Shown: piece by piece, positions 3,720 to 63,411 of the stretch | Layout: each line of letters opens with the position of its first letter | How positions within the stretch are numbered: position 1 is the stretch's first letter | DNA from: Trichothermofontia sichuanensis B231 | GTDB lineage: Bacteria; Cyanobacteriota; Cyanobacteriia; B231 | Length of the DNA stretch: 64,000 bases | Direction: 5' to 3' | Assembly: GCF_026240635.1 (NCBI RefSeq) | Contig: NZ_CP110848.1 | Span: forward strand, 1,614,501 to 1,678,500 | The notes under the pieces: generated by a model | What the model saw: the letters and a program-made list of their open reading frames with translations, nothing else | Told to the model about the DNA's origin: nothing | The model's database searches: none | Translations under genes and position numbers: made by a program

Positions 3720-3826
3720 TATAGTCAATCCAAATAAGAACGATACAGTTGTTCACTCCCCTCTCCCGCTCTGGGAGAGAGGCTGGGGGTGAGGGGGCTG
3801 TCTCCGCCTAAATTGCAATAACTATA
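3720..3826. repeat. 107-bp MITE-like repeat, copy 1
   Basis: It begins TATAGTCAATCCAAATAAGA and ends GCAATAACTATA, with a C-rich core that folds on itself (ccctctcccgctctgggagaga). The ends are imperfect inverted repeats of TATAGT-A-T type. The same 107-bp length and ends recur at 28244-28350, 61455-61561 and 63305-63411. TA next to TAGTCA ends is what IS630-type elements would leave, but no transposase is encoded. Confidence 0.8.
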
Positions 3827-4552: not shown

Positions 4553-4597
4553 CTGAGTTTATGGTGGGGGCGCGTAGCGCCCCCACCATAAACTCAG
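4553..4597. repeat. Perfect hairpin repeat, copy 1 (21-bp arms, GTA loop)
   Basis: Arm 4553-4573 (CTGAGTTTATGGTGGGGGCGC) pairs perfectly with 4577-4597 across a GTA loop. An almost identical hairpin occurs at 12746-12790, with one compensatory pair difference (A-T here, G-C there). It sits between convergent genes and may act as a bidirectional terminator, although no T tract follows. Confidence 0.8.
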
Positions 4598-6309: not shown

Positions 6310-7578
6310 TTAGGGTCGGGATTGACGAGCTGTGGTGACGTGTTGCCGTAATTCGTGGACTTTGCTGGGTAAATCGTCCTGCCGGAGAGTTTGCTGTTCC
6401 CCCGAAAGCAACCATTTGAGCTGAACCGTTTGGGTCTGCGCTTCGGCATCGCCCAGGATCAAGCAGGCTACGGCACCACTGCGATCGGCCCGTTTCAACT
6501 GCTTGCCAAAGGCACTGCCGCTCAGATCCATTTCAATCCGAAAACCAAACTGCCGGAGGGTCTGAGCCAGGACGATTGCCTGGGCTTCGGCCTGCTGGCC
6601 ACGGGCGACGACGTAAAAATCCAGTTCGGGGGGGGCCACTGTCTGGCGTTGTTGCAGCAGGATAATTAACCGCTCTAGCCCGATCGCCCACCCAACGGCT
6701 GGTGTTGCGGGTCCCCCCAGTTGGGCCACAAGACCATCATATCGCCCGCCCCCACACACGGTTTCCTGACCGGCGAGTTCAGCCGATTGGATCTCAAAGG
6801 CCGTATGGGTGTAGTAGTCCAGCCCCCGCACTAACCGGGGATTGACTTGGTAGGGAATACCCAAGTCGGTCAGCAGTTGCTGCACCTGGGCAAATTGCTG
6901 TTGCGAGTCGGTGCACAGGTATTCCAGCAGGTTGGGGGCGGATTGGACAATTTCCTGGGTCCGTTTCACCTTACTGTCTAGGATCCGCAGGGGGTTACGG
7001 GTCAGGCGATCCTGGGAGTCGGGGTCCAGCTCGGCGTGGTAGGGGGTGAGGTAGTCTACCAGAGCTTGGCGGTAGCGGGCGCGATCGTCGGCAGTCCCCA
7101 AGGAATTGATATCTAGCCGGAGTTCGCTCAACCCCAACCGGTTTAGTAATCCTGTCGCTAGGGCAATCACCTCGGCATCGGCACGGGGACTGGCACTCCC
7201 CAAGACCTCGACACCCAACTGGTGAAACTGGCGCTGGCGTCCGGCACCAGGCCGCTCGTACCGAAACATCGGACCAATGTACCATAGGCGCTGTACCCCC
7301 TGGGTGTGGAGGCCATGCTCGATGAAGGCCCGCACGACCCCCGCTGTGCCTTCTGGACGCAGGGTGACCGATCGCCCACCGCGATCGCGAAAAGTATACA
7401 TCTCCTTGCCCACCACATCGGTTGCTTCGCCAATCCCCCGCTCAAACAACGCCGTTTGTTCAAAAATGGGGGTGCGAATTTCCCGATAGGCCGCCTGGGC
7501 CATTTGCTCACGGGCGATCGCCTCAACCTGTTGCCAGTAGACTACTTCCTCCGGGAGGATATCACGGGTCCCACGCAT
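6310..7578 (-). CDS. hisS: Histidyl-tRNA synthetase
   Basis: A 422-residue class II aminoacyl-tRNA synthetase that charges tRNA-His. It begins '[11 protein letters not shown]', the standard N terminus. The class II motif 2 region '[17 protein letters not shown]' and the HisRS-specific '[15 protein letters not shown]' and 'CGGGRYDGL' signatures are present, and the C-terminal anticodon-binding domain follows (about residues 325-415). Length is normal for the family. It is followed by the S2P gene and may share its transcript. Confidence 0.95.
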
Positions 7579-7624
7579 GACTTACCTTAAAATTAAACGG
7601 GCAGAATAAACACCGAGGGGCAAC

Positions 7625-7727
7625 TATAGTTATTTCAGATTAGAAAGAGATGTCTAAACCCCTCCCCCCCTGTGGGAGAGGGGTTGGGGGTTAGGGGGCT
7701 GTTTCAGTCTCAATTGAAATGACTATA
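7625..7727. repeat. 103-bp MITE-like repeat (second subfamily), intact copy
   Basis: Ends are TATAGTTATTTCA and TGAAATGACTATA, a 13-bp inverted repeat with one mismatch. The left half differs from the 107-bp family (CAGATTAGAAAGAGATGTCTAA) while the C-rich core and right end are shared. A left-truncated copy occurs at 25966-26057. The right end overlaps the 3' end of the gene at 7710-8027 and supplies its stop codon. Confidence 0.8.
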
Positions 7728-8027
7728 ACTTGCCTGACTCAATACCCCATCCCAGGGGTGAACCTGGAAGGAGCCGTAGCGTTGACCATAGTACGTCAAA
7801 ATCTGGGTCACCCGTGCATGGCTAGCCGAGGTTGCTGTCGGGTCGTAGTGTATCCCCAGACCCCCCACCTGGCTCTGCTCGTAGGCAAAGGGGCAATTCC
7901 GAGGAGGGGGGATGAGGGCCGTCGTGACGCCCGTGACCTGCGCCAAATGGGCAGCGACTTCACGGTAAACAGCCAGGGGCATCGCTGCAAATTCAACTTG
8001 ATAGGGAGGGGTAGGTGAGAGGTCCAT
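7710..8027 (-). CDS. Conserved cyanobacterial hypothetical protein ending inside a repeat
   Basis: About 105 residues from the ATG at 8027 (MDLSPTPPYQVEFAAMPLAV); a longer frame to 8132 would overlap the upstream regulator gene and adds unconvincing sequence. The body ('VYREVAAHLAQVTGV', 'SQVGGLGIHY', 'RVTQILTYYGQRYG') looks like a well-conserved small cyanobacterial family of unknown function. The final residues YSHFN and the TGA are encoded by the end of the MITE-like repeat, so the native C terminus may have been replaced. The gene follows the LuxR-type gene by 32 bp on the same strand and is probably co-transcribed. Confidence 0.65.
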   Translation of the reverse strand: MDLSPTPPYQVEFAAMPLAVYREVAAHLAQVTGVTTALIPPPRNCPFAYEQSQVGGLGIHYDPTATSASHARVTQILTYYGQRYGSFQVHPWDGVLSQASYSHFN

Positions 8028-8059
8028 TATTAAGTCCAAGGTGAACATGCGGCAAGCGG

Positions 8060-8359
8060 CTACTCGGAGGGGGCTTCTGAGTGCTGATCCTCGATCGTGG
8101 TGTTTGCCGTTGGCAGCATACAACAGTTCCACTGATCGAGGCAGACTTTACCCCACTGAAGTGCCCAAAGGACCAAAGCTGTGCGGTTTTCTGTCTCCGT
8201 TTTGGTGAGAATGTTGCTGATGTGGTTGTCCACCGTGCGCTTACTGATATCCAAACGGGCGGCAATCTCCTGATTTGTGAGGCCAGAGGCGACTAATTCA
8301 ACAATTTGCAACTCCCGATCGGATAGCACGTTGCTGGTTGGTGATTCATGGTTGCTCAT
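8060..8359 (-). CDS. pedR: Small LuxR-type transcriptional regulator, PedR-like
   Basis: A 99-residue protein consisting almost entirely of a LuxR/GerE helix-turn-helix: 'LSDRELQIVELVASGLTNQE', then 'ISKRTVDNHISNIL'. The C-terminal part 'LVLWALQWGKVCLDQWNCC' contains cysteines, as in PedR (Ssl0564 of Synechocystis), a small redox-responsive LuxR regulator of light-dependent genes that has no receiver domain. The start at 8359 gives the normal short length; a frame reaching 8446 would add 29 non-conserved residues. The PedR name rests on my recollection of the family pattern and should be taken as likely, not certain. Confidence 0.75.
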   Translation of the reverse strand: MSNHESPTSNVLSDRELQIVELVASGLTNQEIAARLDISKRTVDNHISNILTKTETENRTALVLWALQWGKVCLDQWNCCMLPTANTTIEDQHSEAPSE

Positions 8360-12745: not shown

Positions 12746-12790
12746 CTGGGTTTATGGTGGGGGCGCGTAGCGCCCCCACCATAAACCCAG
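12746..12790. repeat. Perfect hairpin repeat, copy 2 (21-bp arms, GTA loop)
   Basis: Arm 12746-12766 (CTGGGTTTATGGTGGGGGCGC) pairs perfectly with 12770-12790. It differs from copy 1 at 4553-4597 at one base in each arm, and the two changes compensate (A-T to G-C). It lies about 125 bp downstream of gvpG. Confidence 0.8.
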
Positions 12791-14119: not shown

Positions 14120-14126
14120 CGGTTGA

Positions 14127-14314
14127 GTTACAGCCTTTACCTAATTGACTCAGTACACCCTTCAGGTTTGGATCGCGATCTGACCGGCAGCCCTCATCCC
14201 CCACCCCCTTCTCCCAAGTGGGGAGAAGTAAACCCTCACCCTAAATCCCTCTCCCAGAGCCGGAGAGGGATTTAGGGTGAGGAGGCTGTTTCAGCCTAAA
14301 TTGCAATGACGATA
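14127..14314. repeat. Composite of two dispersed repeats upstream of the helicase gene
   Basis: The left part (14127-14160, tacagcctttacctaattgactcagtacacc) belongs to the repeat seen at 10431 and, inverted, at 32218-32297. The right part (about 14225-14314) is a MITE core with the right end GCAATGACGATA of the 107-bp family. Two C-rich self-complementary segments lie between (14195-14230 and 14235-14280). Confidence 0.6.
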
Positions 14315-25901: not shown

Positions 25902-25965
25902 ACAGGTATTAATCGATATTTCTACCGCTATCCAACAAGCATTACTGTATGCCCAAGGTATTGAT
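25888..25965 (+). pseudogene. HEPN toxin, third copy, truncated by a repeat
   Basis: MLRDKQVLIDISTAIQQALL and a few further codons match the start of the HEPN protein at 24685. Similarity stops at 25965 where the MITE-like repeat begins, so the RX4HXY motif is lost. It overlaps the decayed MNT gene by 14 bp exactly like the intact pair. Confidence 0.85.
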
Positions 25966-26057
25966 CAGATTAGAAAGAGATGTCTAAGCCCCTCTCCCCC
26001 TGTGGGAGAGGCGTTGGGGGTGAGGGTGTTGTTTCAGCCTAAATGGCAATGACTATA
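25966..26057. repeat. 103-bp-family repeat, left end truncated, interrupting the HEPN copy
   Basis: CAGATTAGAAAGAGATGTCTAA and the C-rich core match the 7625-7727 element; the right end GCAATGACTATA is complete. About 11 bp of the left end is missing, which would bring it to 103 bp. Confidence 0.75.
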
Positions 26058-28243: not shown

Positions 28244-28350
28244 TATAGTCAATCCAAATAAGAACGATACAGTCCTTCGCTCCCCTCTCCCTCTCTGGGA
28301 GAGGGACTGGGGGTGAGGGTATTGTTTCAGTCTAAATTGCAATGGTTATC
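28244..28350. repeat. 107-bp MITE-like repeat, supplying the stop codon of the HD gene
   Basis: It begins TATAGTCAATCCAAATAAGA and ends GCAATGGTTATC, the same length and ends as at 3720-3826. The HD-domain gene on the minus strand enters it at its right end and stops inside it (TGA at 28327-28329). Confidence 0.8.
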
Positions 28351-28986
28351 GTTCTCCCCACTCCGGCTGACTTGCTGTAAAGCCCAATTGCGGGTCAAAA
28401 CTGTGCGAGGATGGATCAGCCGCCGTGTTATCAATAAACGCTGGATCACATAGGTGCTGGTTTCGGCGATCGCTAAATAGAGGTTGCGTTGACTCAAATC
28501 CCGCAGGCTGGCGAGTTCTGGCGTGTTGCCCCGTCCCGGTTCCAGACTATCCGCCAGAAAGACGACGCAACTAAGCGGGGACATTTCCGGCGCCCCCAGG
28601 GTATGGTGTCGAATGGCATCTAGGACGGCAGGATCAGTGATACCAAAGATATCCCTCGCCACGATCGCCCCGACCTCGGCATGTAATAGCTGGGGAGCAG
28701 CCACCAGCGTGTCATCGAGGGGAATTCCCGCCTCCTGAGCCATCGCCAGCAGTTGGGCAGGTGGGAAGTGTTTAGCCAGATCGTGCAGCAACGCCGCCTG
28801 GGCAGCCTGCTGGGGGTCAACCTGGTGCTGACGGGCCAACGCGATCGCCAGCGCTTCGACGGCCAAAATATGACGCAGCCGCTTCGGCGTAACCTGGGGT
28901 TCTAACCAGGCTAGGACCGCGCTTTTGAGATCCGTAGGGGAAGTGTTAGCCACAGGCACCGGGGCGTCCGCTCGCCCAAGCTGCAT
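28327..28986 (-). CDS. yqeK: HD-domain phosphohydrolase, YqeK-like (probable symmetrical Ap4A hydrolase)
   Basis: 219 residues. 'RLRHILAVEALA', then 'LLHDLAKH' (the HD pair), 'HAEVGAIVA' and 'IRHHTLG', with 'VVFLADSLEPGR' later, match YqeK, which hydrolyses diadenosine tetraphosphate symmetrically. The C-terminal 'NDNHCNLD' and the TGA are read from the MITE-like repeat, as at 7710. The gene lies 38 bp downstream of the dehydrogenase gene on the same strand and may share its transcript. Confidence 0.85.
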   Translation of the reverse strand: MQLGRADAPVPVANTSPTDLKSAVLAWLEPQVTPKRLRHILAVEALAIALARQHQVDPQQAAQAALLHDLAKHFPPAQLLAMAQEAGIPLDDTLVAAPQLLHAEVGAIVARDIFGITDPAVLDAIRHHTLGAPEMSPLSCVVFLADSLEPGRGNTPELASLRDLSQRNLYLAIAETSTYVIQRLLITRRLIHPRTVLTRNWALQQVSRSGENDNHCNLD

Positions 28987-32122: not shown

Positions 32123-32654
32123 ACAGTCTTTACCTCGATCATAAAGTACAGTTTTACCTGGGTAGGCTGGGGACAGCCCACGGGTGAGGGGTCCATTCGC
32201 CCCCTTTGGGAGACGGGGTTAGGGGATGAGGGCTGCCACTCGGATCAAGGTCCAAACCTTAATGGTGTACCGAGTCAATGAGGTAAAGGCTGTATCACAA
32301 CAGAGGATAGAGGATAACAGCTAGAAACCAAGAACTCCGAGAGTGGACACGTCCAGACACGAACAAGAACACCTCATCCCGTCTCCTGCTCCCACAGCCG
32401 GCCAGTGGTTGAGGATCAAGGCACAACCCTCCCTTGTTCAGATCTTATCAAGATTTTATGACCATATAGTAATGCGCAGCCAGTTGGCGATCGCAGCGAG
32501 GCATAGGCTGGGGGCAACTACGCCCCAGGGGTTACGGTTTGCCCCAATGTGAGCCGGGAGACGACTGCCTAAAGTAGAGAAGTAAGGGAAAAGTCAGCCA
32601 TCTCACCGAGTATTTACCCGCGTTCACCGCGTCATCCTTAACAGGAGTCATCCT
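32123..32654. other. Gene-free spacer before hsp20, with an inverted dispersed repeat
   Basis: At 32197-32297 the sequence matches, in inverted orientation, the dispersed repeat at 14127-14190 (ends gaggtaaaggctgtatcac). A short ORF at 32343-32552 has no family likeness. A CIRCE element (TTAGCACTC-N9-GAGTGCTAA) is not present. The 32600-32654 leader has a clear ribosome site (CAGGAG) before the hsp20 ATG. Confidence 0.5.
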
Positions 32655-37031: not shown

Positions 37032-37358
37032 TCAGACTCCCACCTCGACGAGCAGTGCCGTCATGGCGGCGATCGTCAGCCCCGTCTCCAGGTACTGGGG
37101 ATGCTCTGGATCGTAGGGACTCCGAAGGCGATCGATCGCAATAATCCGGGCCGATTCCGGCAACACGGGCACATCGGGATCGGGGTCAGTCGGGCGGGTT
37201 AGGGAACTGGCAAAGCCCCGAAAGATCACCACTTCTTCCGGCTCTCCGGCAATTTCAGCCCGGACCAGGAGGACTTCCTGGGGACGCTTGCGGGTGTACT
37301 GCTCTAGGCGACGTTCATACACCGTCTGCGCAGGTGCATCGAACCTTTCCTTAGCCAT
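37032..37358 (-). CDS. Conserved cyanobacterial protein, unknown function
   Basis: 108 residues. 'YERRLEQYTRKRPQEVLLVR', 'EEVVIFRGFASSLTRPT' and 'DPDVPVLPESARIIAIDRL' are regular and well-formed; they look like a small conserved cyanobacterial family (possibly DUF7734), of unknown function. The ATG at 37358 overlaps the upstream Rpn-type gene by 8 bp, implying coupling; the TTG at 37367 would add three residues. Confidence 0.6.
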   Translation of the reverse strand: MAKERFDAPAQTVYERRLEQYTRKRPQEVLLVRAEIAGEPEEVVIFRGFASSLTRPTDPDPDVPVLPESARIIAIDRLRSPYDPEHPQYLETGLTIAAMTALLVEVGV

Positions 37359-38271
37359 TATTGCCAACCTGATGGATCTGAGCTAACCAATGTTCTAACG
37401 CGGCCCGATCGGTCCAATCAAATACCCCCTCAACCAAGGCTTCCAACTGCTCAACCGCAAGCGCCTTTACCTGATCCATCAGGTTGGGGTCCAGTTCACC
37501 AAACCGACGCTTTAATAACCGCAGGGCAAGTGCGATCGCTTCTTCCCGGCGACCTTCCTGGCGACCTTCCTGGCGACCTTCCTGGCGACCTTCCTGGCGA
37601 CCTTCCTGGCGACCTTCCTGGCGGCCCTTGAGTTCCCCTTCCTGGAAAATTTCTTGATAGATCACCGATTCGCGCATAATCCCCTCCTGGAAAACTTGAC
37701 GAATTAACCCCTTGTCGAATTTTAAGCCTGCCAATAGTTGCACGTAGCAGGAAACCTGCTGACGCGCTTGCTCTGATTCTAGCTGACGTACCCGTTGGGC
37801 AATTTCGGTTAGCCATTGCTCCGGGTTAGGTCGATCCACGAGCGACGCAAACGGCAACAGCACGGGATCGGCAAGCAAGGGTTGGGGATCCTGCTCCCAG
37901 AGGCACAGAACTTGGTAGTGATGCACGGTTCCTTCAAGGGCAAAGCAGGTTTCAATCACCGTCTCTGCTGGTGGGGGCAATAGCAAAACCACGACCTGGG
38001 TAATCGGGAGGCGGTAGGCACGGTATAACCGCACCCAATAGTCCAACATCCGCAAGGGCAACGGGGGGTCAGACTTGAGGTGGGTTTGAAACTCTAAATG
38101 CAAGATGCGATTTTGCGTCCGGAGCAAGACAACGGTATCAGCGCGGATAGGTTCGATGCTCAACTCAGTTTTCAGCACACTCACCGACTGGGGAGCTTCA
38201 CCCAGAATCCAGGCTGCTATGCGATCGGGGTATTGCTCGGCCAGAAATTTGCAAAGATTATCAAACGACAT
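37351..38271 (-). CDS. Rpn family putative nuclease/transposase-related protein with DUF4351-like tail
   Basis: 306 residues. The N-terminal part 'NRILHLEFQTHLKSDPPLPL' (the E-Q pair of the PD-(D/E)XK-like Rpn/PDDEXK site) and 'ADTVVLLRTQ' match the RpnA/PDDEXK_2 family of recombination-promoting nucleases. A glycine/glutamate repeat (RQEG about six times, near residues 216-240) links it to a C-terminal helical domain. The repeat is encoded by a 12-bp tandem repeat. Confidence 0.75.
   Translation of the reverse strand: MSFDNLCKFLAEQYPDRIAAWILGEAPQSVSVLKTELSIEPIRADTVVLLRTQNRILHLEFQTHLKSDPPLPLRMLDYWVRLYRAYRLPITQVVVLLLPPPAETVIETCFALEGTVHHYQVLCLWEQDPQPLLADPVLLPFASLVDRPNPEQWLTEIAQRVRQLESEQARQQVSCYVQLLAGLKFDKGLIRQVFQEGIMRESVIYQEIFQEGELKGRQEGRQEGRQEGRQEGRQEGRQEGRREEAIALALRLLKRRFGELDPNLMDQVKALAVEQLEALVEGVFDWTDRAALEHWLAQIHQVGNNG
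37548..37625. repeat. 12-bp tandem repeat encoding (RQEG)n
   Basis: CTTCCTGGCGAC recurs about six times without a change and once with small changes, inside the Rpn-type gene. It keeps the reading frame and would allow length variation by slippage. Confidence 0.85.
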
Positions 38272-61454: not shown

Positions 61455-61561
61455 TATCGTCATTGCCATTTAGGCTGAAACAGCCCCCTCACCCCCAGCC
61501 CCTCTCCCGGAGCGGGAGAGGGGAGCCAAAAACTGTATCGTTCTTATTGGGATTGACCATA
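61455..61561. repeat. 107-bp MITE-like repeat, copy at the rsgA 3' end
   Basis: It begins TATCGTCATTGCC and ends GATTGACCATA, opposite in orientation to copies 1 and 3. TCTGGATTAA lies on the left twice (61431-61440, 61441-61450) and once on the right (61563-61572), so a duplication flanks the element. Confidence 0.75.
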
Positions 61562-63304: not shown

Positions 63305-63411
63305 TATAGTCATTGCAATTTAGGCTGAAACAGCACCCTCACCTCCAGCCTCTCTCCCGCTCTGGGGGAGGGGAGTCAAAAATTGTATCGTTCTTATTTG
63401 GATTGACCATA
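63305..63411. repeat. 107-bp MITE-like repeat, near the tRNA
   Basis: It begins TATAGTCATTGCAATTTAGG and ends GATTGACCATA, with a C-rich/G-rich core. The length and ends match the other 107-bp copies. Confidence 0.85.

What the first reader, a model, noticed from the sequence alone, without database searches (positions are those of the whole stretch)
7710..8027. A repeat end supplies the last codons and stop of this gene
The minus-strand gene ends YSHFN-stop inside the right end of the 103-bp element (TATAGTCATTTCAATTGA read from the repeat). A second gene at 28327-28986 does the same with NHCNLD-stop from the 107-bp element. Two unrelated genes ending in the same frame of the same repeat end suggests that the element end acts as a portable stop after insertion into a 3' end.
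Basis: seen in the sequence. Interest (0 to 1): 0.6.

Follow-up and report, generated by a model that had tools for sequence, protein, structure and literature searches.

The report
Transposon end that replaces gene stops
A common short mobile DNA element has landed at the very end of two genes and supplies their last few codons and stop, which is an ordinary side effect of where it can insert and no more frequent than chance.

Summary
Genes 7710-8027(-) and 28327-28986(-) end inside the right ends of two related 103/107-bp repeats, in the same frame, though at different stop codons (18 and 24 nt into the element). The repeat is a MITE-like element with TA target duplication (20 elements with gapless paralogous empty sites) and about 400 copies in this 4.44-Mb cyanobacterial-type genome; its end was found in none of the other 387 class genomes searched. 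Neither gene's orthologues end in the repeat-encoded residues (0 of 58 rows), so the tails do come from the element. But of 265 unique elements examined, only 6 hold a gene stop, in two reading phases and through both ends. In the unbiased sample it is 3 of 131, below the roughly 15 expected if TA sites in the last ten codons were as open as intergenic ones. The shared frame follows from the target: TA sites at gene ends lie mostly in codon phase 1 because TAA/TAG stops begin with TA. In gene 1 the inferred pre-insertion site is the native TAG stop itself. 'Portable stop' is a passive consequence, not an enriched behaviour. New member of a known kind.

The parts
7710..8027 (-). gene 1: conserved cyanobacterial-class protein, 105 aa, last 5 codons and TGA from the element
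   Evidence: no Pfam match
7625..7727 (+). 103-type MITE copy including both flanking TA; right end at 7727
7710..7727 (-). TATAGTCATTTCAATTGA: element right end read as YSHFN-stop
28327..28986 (-). gene 2: YqeK-type bis(5'-nucleosyl)-tetraphosphatase, 219 aa
   Evidence: (TIGR00488, E 1.5e-56)
28244..28350 (+). 107-type MITE copy; outer right TA reads GA on the gene strand
28327..28350 (-). element right end read as DNHCNLD-stop
3720..3826 (+). intergenic 107-type copy, no gene stop inside
25964..26057 (+). left-truncated 103-type copy
61455..61561 (-). intergenic 107-type copy
63305..63411 (-). intergenic 107-type copy

Best explanation
The repeat is a non-autonomous, MITE-like transposon that inserts at TA and duplicates it. 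Its AT-rich terminal inverted repeats happen to hold stop codons, so when a copy lands in the last codons of a gene (in gene 1, in the TA of the native TAG stop; in gene 2, two codons before a native TGA) translation runs 5-7 residues into the repeat and stops there. Such insertions survive only because they hit the variable tail behind the conserved domain. The shared frame comes from the target: TA at gene ends lies mostly in codon phase 1, because TAA and TAG begin with TA. The element has no preference for gene ends. Shown: TA empty sites, copy number, frames, orthologue tails. Inferred: past transposition by a transposase not found here, and neutrality of the tails.
For: About 400 right ends with 0 in the reversed control. 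TA target: 36 of 218 flank-joined elements have junction-spanning paralogues; 20 elements have at least one gapless paralogue, 22 or more of 26 bases identical, with a single TA. Six stop-in cases with reconstructed ends: SQASYSHFN from SQAS; GENDNHCNLD from GENYL; FYGHCHLG from FYQSSLG; VGQL from VGQLESSSV; KQL from a 24-residue longer tail; ESYGQSK from ESYNTNSTFLL. Phase: 971 of 1753 TA sites in the last ten codons plus stop are phase 1, 745 of them the stop codon itself; 4 of 6 cases are phase 1, P(at least 4) 0.45. Rarity: 3 of 131 against about 15 expected. Where domains match (4 of the 6 genes by Pfam, gene 2 by NCBIfam; gene 1 has none), the matched domains end upstream of the element.
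Against: Only six cases, so phase preferences are weakly tested. Gene calls are my own codon-usage calls without ribosome-binding-site evidence. The TA null ignores any local sequence preference of the element. No orthologue closer than about 60% identity exists, so pre-insertion ends are inferred from the flanks, not seen in a sister strain. No parent transposase with these ends was found. In gene 2 the outer right TA reads GA, so one base of the duplication must have mutated.
Confidence: 0.88

Rival explanations
1. Portable stop in the reader's sense: the ends were selected to close reading frames, so that the element prefers or is favoured at gene 3' ends.
For: The right end closes all three phases within 24 nt in a typical copy (147 of 164, 145 of 164 and 153 of 164 full 107-type copies at 24, 5 and 19 nt). 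Elements are over-represented between convergent genes, 39 seen against 15.4 expected by TA sites.
Against: Stops inside elements are rarer than expected (3 of 131, P about 2e-4 under the last-ten-codon null; 1 of 131 in a native stop codon against 6.5 expected). The left end of the 107-type leaves one phase without a stop in the first 30 nt in all 164 full copies.
Confidence: 0.05
2. The element acts at the RNA level as a gene 3'-end hairpin (processing, stability or termination); gene-end overlaps are the extreme of a real preference for 3' flanks.
For: Strong fold on both strands of the two window copies (z -3.2 to -4.6); convergent gaps enriched 2.5-fold, divergent depleted (13 against 35; chi-square 50).
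Against: No terminator-like site found around copy 1; selection against insertion into promoters explains the same bias; a similar bias is reported for REPs in general (PMC3733652, passages seen).
Confidence: 0.15
3. The overlaps are false gene calls: the genes really end elsewhere.
For: Gene 1 is short and without a family model.
Against: Orthologues align to both genes close to the last residues before the element; gene 2 matches TIGR00488 to the model's end.
Confidence: 0.03

Closest known systems
GTAG-type REPs (PMC3733652; passages seen)
   Different: Those are 20-40 bp palindromes often associated with RAYT transposases; this is a 103-107 bp element with inverted-repeat ends and TA duplication.
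Enterobacterial RU-1/ERIC-like MITEs (Delihas 2007, PMC2759123; passages seen)
   Same: TA-duplicating small element; RU-1 at the 3' end of an amidase gene appears to have removed the normal stop and supplies a new tail.
   Different: RU-1 carries an open frame and adds about 35 residues; here the right end closes every phase within 24 nt.
MITEAba12 (PMC6382973; passages seen)
   Same: A 113-bp MITE whose end fuses to a gene 3' end and gives a premature stop; at least two stops in all six frames.
   Different: It has a known related IS (ISAba12); the fused gene is a pseudogene. Its ends were not compared with these.
Nezha MITE of cyanobacteria (seen only as citations in PMC10969869 and PMC3733652)
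   Same: MITE in cyanobacteria.
   Different: Sequence not compared here.

Membership tests
MITE | short, non-coding, present in many copies | tested here: met
   103/107 bp, about 400 right ends; no called gene lies within an element
MITE | terminal inverted repeats | tested here: met
   imperfect: left and right 107-type ends differ at 9 of 29 positions (by eye on the consensus; consistent with the mismatch counts); ends pair in the folds
MITE | target-site duplication | tested here: met
   TA; gapless paralogous empty sites for 20 elements
MITE | autonomous relative with the same ends | tested here: inconclusive
   none around 12 DDE_3 matches nor between paired ends in the fetched DNA; only part of the genome was read
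IS630/Tc1-mariner derivative | TA duplication | tested here: met
IS630/Tc1-mariner derivative | ends shared with a DDE_3 transposase element | tested here: not met
   the DDE_3 copies inspected have other inverted repeats; so not filed as IS630
GTAG REP | 20-40 bp palindrome tagged GTAG at one end | tested here: not met
   element is 103-107 bp with TA-bounded inverted repeats; RAYT association was not tested

The most novel reading that the evidence does not exclude
The element family has been partly domesticated as a gene 3'-end module: an intercistronic hairpin with all-phase stops at its right end, tolerated or favoured downstream of genes and between convergent genes, where it shapes both protein tails and transcript ends.
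Probability: 0.08. Interest if true: 0.45.

Novelty: new member of a known kind. Interest (0 to 1): 0.2.

Why it matters
It shows how a TA-targeting mobile element can rewrite protein C-termini with little damage: stop codons TAA/TAG are themselves TA targets, so an insertion there converts the stop to a tyrosine codon and the element's own end must supply the next stop. The effect is small and rare here (6 of 265 elements), but it warns annotators that short C-terminal tails like YSHFN or NHCNLD are transposon-derived and should not be read as conserved motifs.

Tried and rejected
Parent transposon: paired ends more than 140 bp apart with a gene between them flanked only ordinary genes (urease accessory UreD, long-chain fatty aldehyde decarbonylase, GH3 protein); DDE_3 copies have other ends. 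A third repeat family as control for the convergent bias: its end hits could not be paired within 300 bp, so that control was not obtained. Literature: no held paper contains the end sequences (exact strings only). PMC2950511 and PMC3393498 are not held.

Rows dropped before counts: of 160 element hits in the systematic sample, 131 with at least one complete end and score over 40 were kept; with the further loci, 292 such elements became 265 after removing duplicates. The extra 134 were chosen by similarity or mismatch order, so only the 131 serve as the unbiased set; the window, with 2 of the 3 cases, is part of that set because the finding came from it, so outside the window the count is lower still (1 case). 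One of 60 planned stretches was not fetched because it overlaps the window. One element has a gene start inside it (L217). Orthologue rows: 29 of the 44 relatives matching gene 1, and all 29 relatives matching gene 2.

Full report
Observation. The two genes end as described. Gene 1 (7710-8027, minus) ends YSHFN-TGA within the right end of the element at 7625-7727; gene 2 (28327-28986, minus) ends NHCNLD-TGA within the right end of the element at 28244-28350. Both read into the right end with the duplicated TA as the first two bases of a codon, the same phase, but stop at different internal positions, 18 and 24 nt. Gene 2 is YqeK-like (TIGR00488); gene 1 has no family model but has relatives in 44 of 58 other class genomes.

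What the repeat is. Two related types, 103 and 107 bp, share the right end and a G+C-rich central hairpin. A 23-base right-end pattern with up to 3 mismatches has 403 places in the 4,436,989-base genome and none for the reversed control. A 28-base version occurs in 1 of 388 class genomes, this one only. I joined the flanks of 218 full elements at a single TA: 36 find junction-spanning paralogues, and 20 elements have a gapless one with 22 or more of 26 bases identical and a single TA. So the element inserts at TA and duplicates it. Together with the imperfect inverted-repeat ends and the absence of genes inside, that makes it MITE-like. No parent was found: the 12 DDE_3 matches in the genome have no such ends nearby.

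How often genes end in it. I took 59 evenly spaced 20-kb stretches plus the window (1.244 Mb, 28% of the genome), called genes by codon usage (983 genes) and classified 131 elements: 128 intergenic, 3 with a gene stop inside, none inside a gene. Two of the three are the genes of this finding, so the rest of the sample adds one. Adding further loci gives 265 unique elements: 258 clear of genes, 6 with a stop inside, 1 with a start inside. If TA sites in the last ten codons plus stop were as available as intergenic ones, about 15 of 131 would be expected; 3 or fewer has probability 2e-4. For the native stop codon itself 6.5 are expected and 1 seen (gene 1; P of 1 or fewer 0.01). Gene ends are thus under-used, not favoured, presumably because most such insertions are selected against (inference).

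Why the same frame. Of 1753 TA sites in the last ten codons plus stop, 971 are in codon phase 1, and 745 of these are the TAA/TAG stop itself; in the last five codons 71% are phase 1. Insertion in phase 1 at the right end turns the codon into TAT, and the element then reads on to a stop at 18 or 24 nt. Four of the six cases are phase 1, as expected (P of 4 or more 0.45); two are phase 2 and stop at once on the element's own TAG. Two of the six enter through the left end.

What was there before. Joined flanks give: gene 1 SQAS-stop (the insertion lies in the TAG), gene 2 GENYL-stop, an RsmD-like methyltransferase GFYQSSLG, an Obg-like GTPase VGQLESSSV, a Uma2-family protein with a 24-residue longer tail, and a thiamine-pyrophosphate enzyme ESYNTNSTFLL ('RsmD-like' is recalled for Pfam Cons_hypoth95, 'Obg-like' reads GTP1/OBG). 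Orthologues of genes 1 and 2 end within the same variable region, and none of 58 rows has the repeat-encoded tail.

Surroundings. Elements are over-represented in convergent gaps (39 seen, 15.4 expected by TA sites) and scarce in divergent gaps (13, 35.0); tandem gaps match expectation (73, 74.6); 6 at stretch edges were left out; chi-square 50. Selection against promoter insertion suffices to explain this; a 3'-end RNA role is not excluded. Folds of the two window copies are strong on both strands, but the one region scanned (7400-8200) showed no terminator-like site.

What is known. PMC3733652 (passages seen) says GTAG REP termini often provide the stop to flanking ORFs; PMC2759123 (passages) describes a MITE at a gene 3' end that removed the normal stop; PMC6382973 (passages) describes a MITE end giving a stop to a fused gene; PMC2229807 (passages) notes stops in all frames of several small repeats. 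The phenomenon is known; this element's end sequences were not found in any held paper (exact strings only).

Noticed in passing
element cores, e.g. window 28277-28319: The central hairpin 23-mer (up to 2 mismatches) occurs in 81 of 145 class genomes including this one (373 places here, 237 in G003), while the element's right end was found only here (1 of 388): a widespread palindromic core in lineage-specific ends.
   Followed up: partly
L266-L270; window 14122-14241 and 32182-32301: Another repeat family, whose end reads TACAGCCTTTACC..., resembles the inverted repeats of IS630-type (DDE_3) copies in this genome, TACAGCCTTTCCC....
   Followed up: partly
window 4553-4597 and 12746-12790; L268 2713-2755: A near-perfect palindrome of about 45 bp, present in several copies.
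   Followed up: no
window 37518-37656: A 12-bp unit tandemly repeated inside the called gene 37351-38271.
   Followed up: no
systematic sample of the genome (window plus L121-L179): Elements are enriched between convergent genes and depleted between divergent genes.
   Followed up: partly
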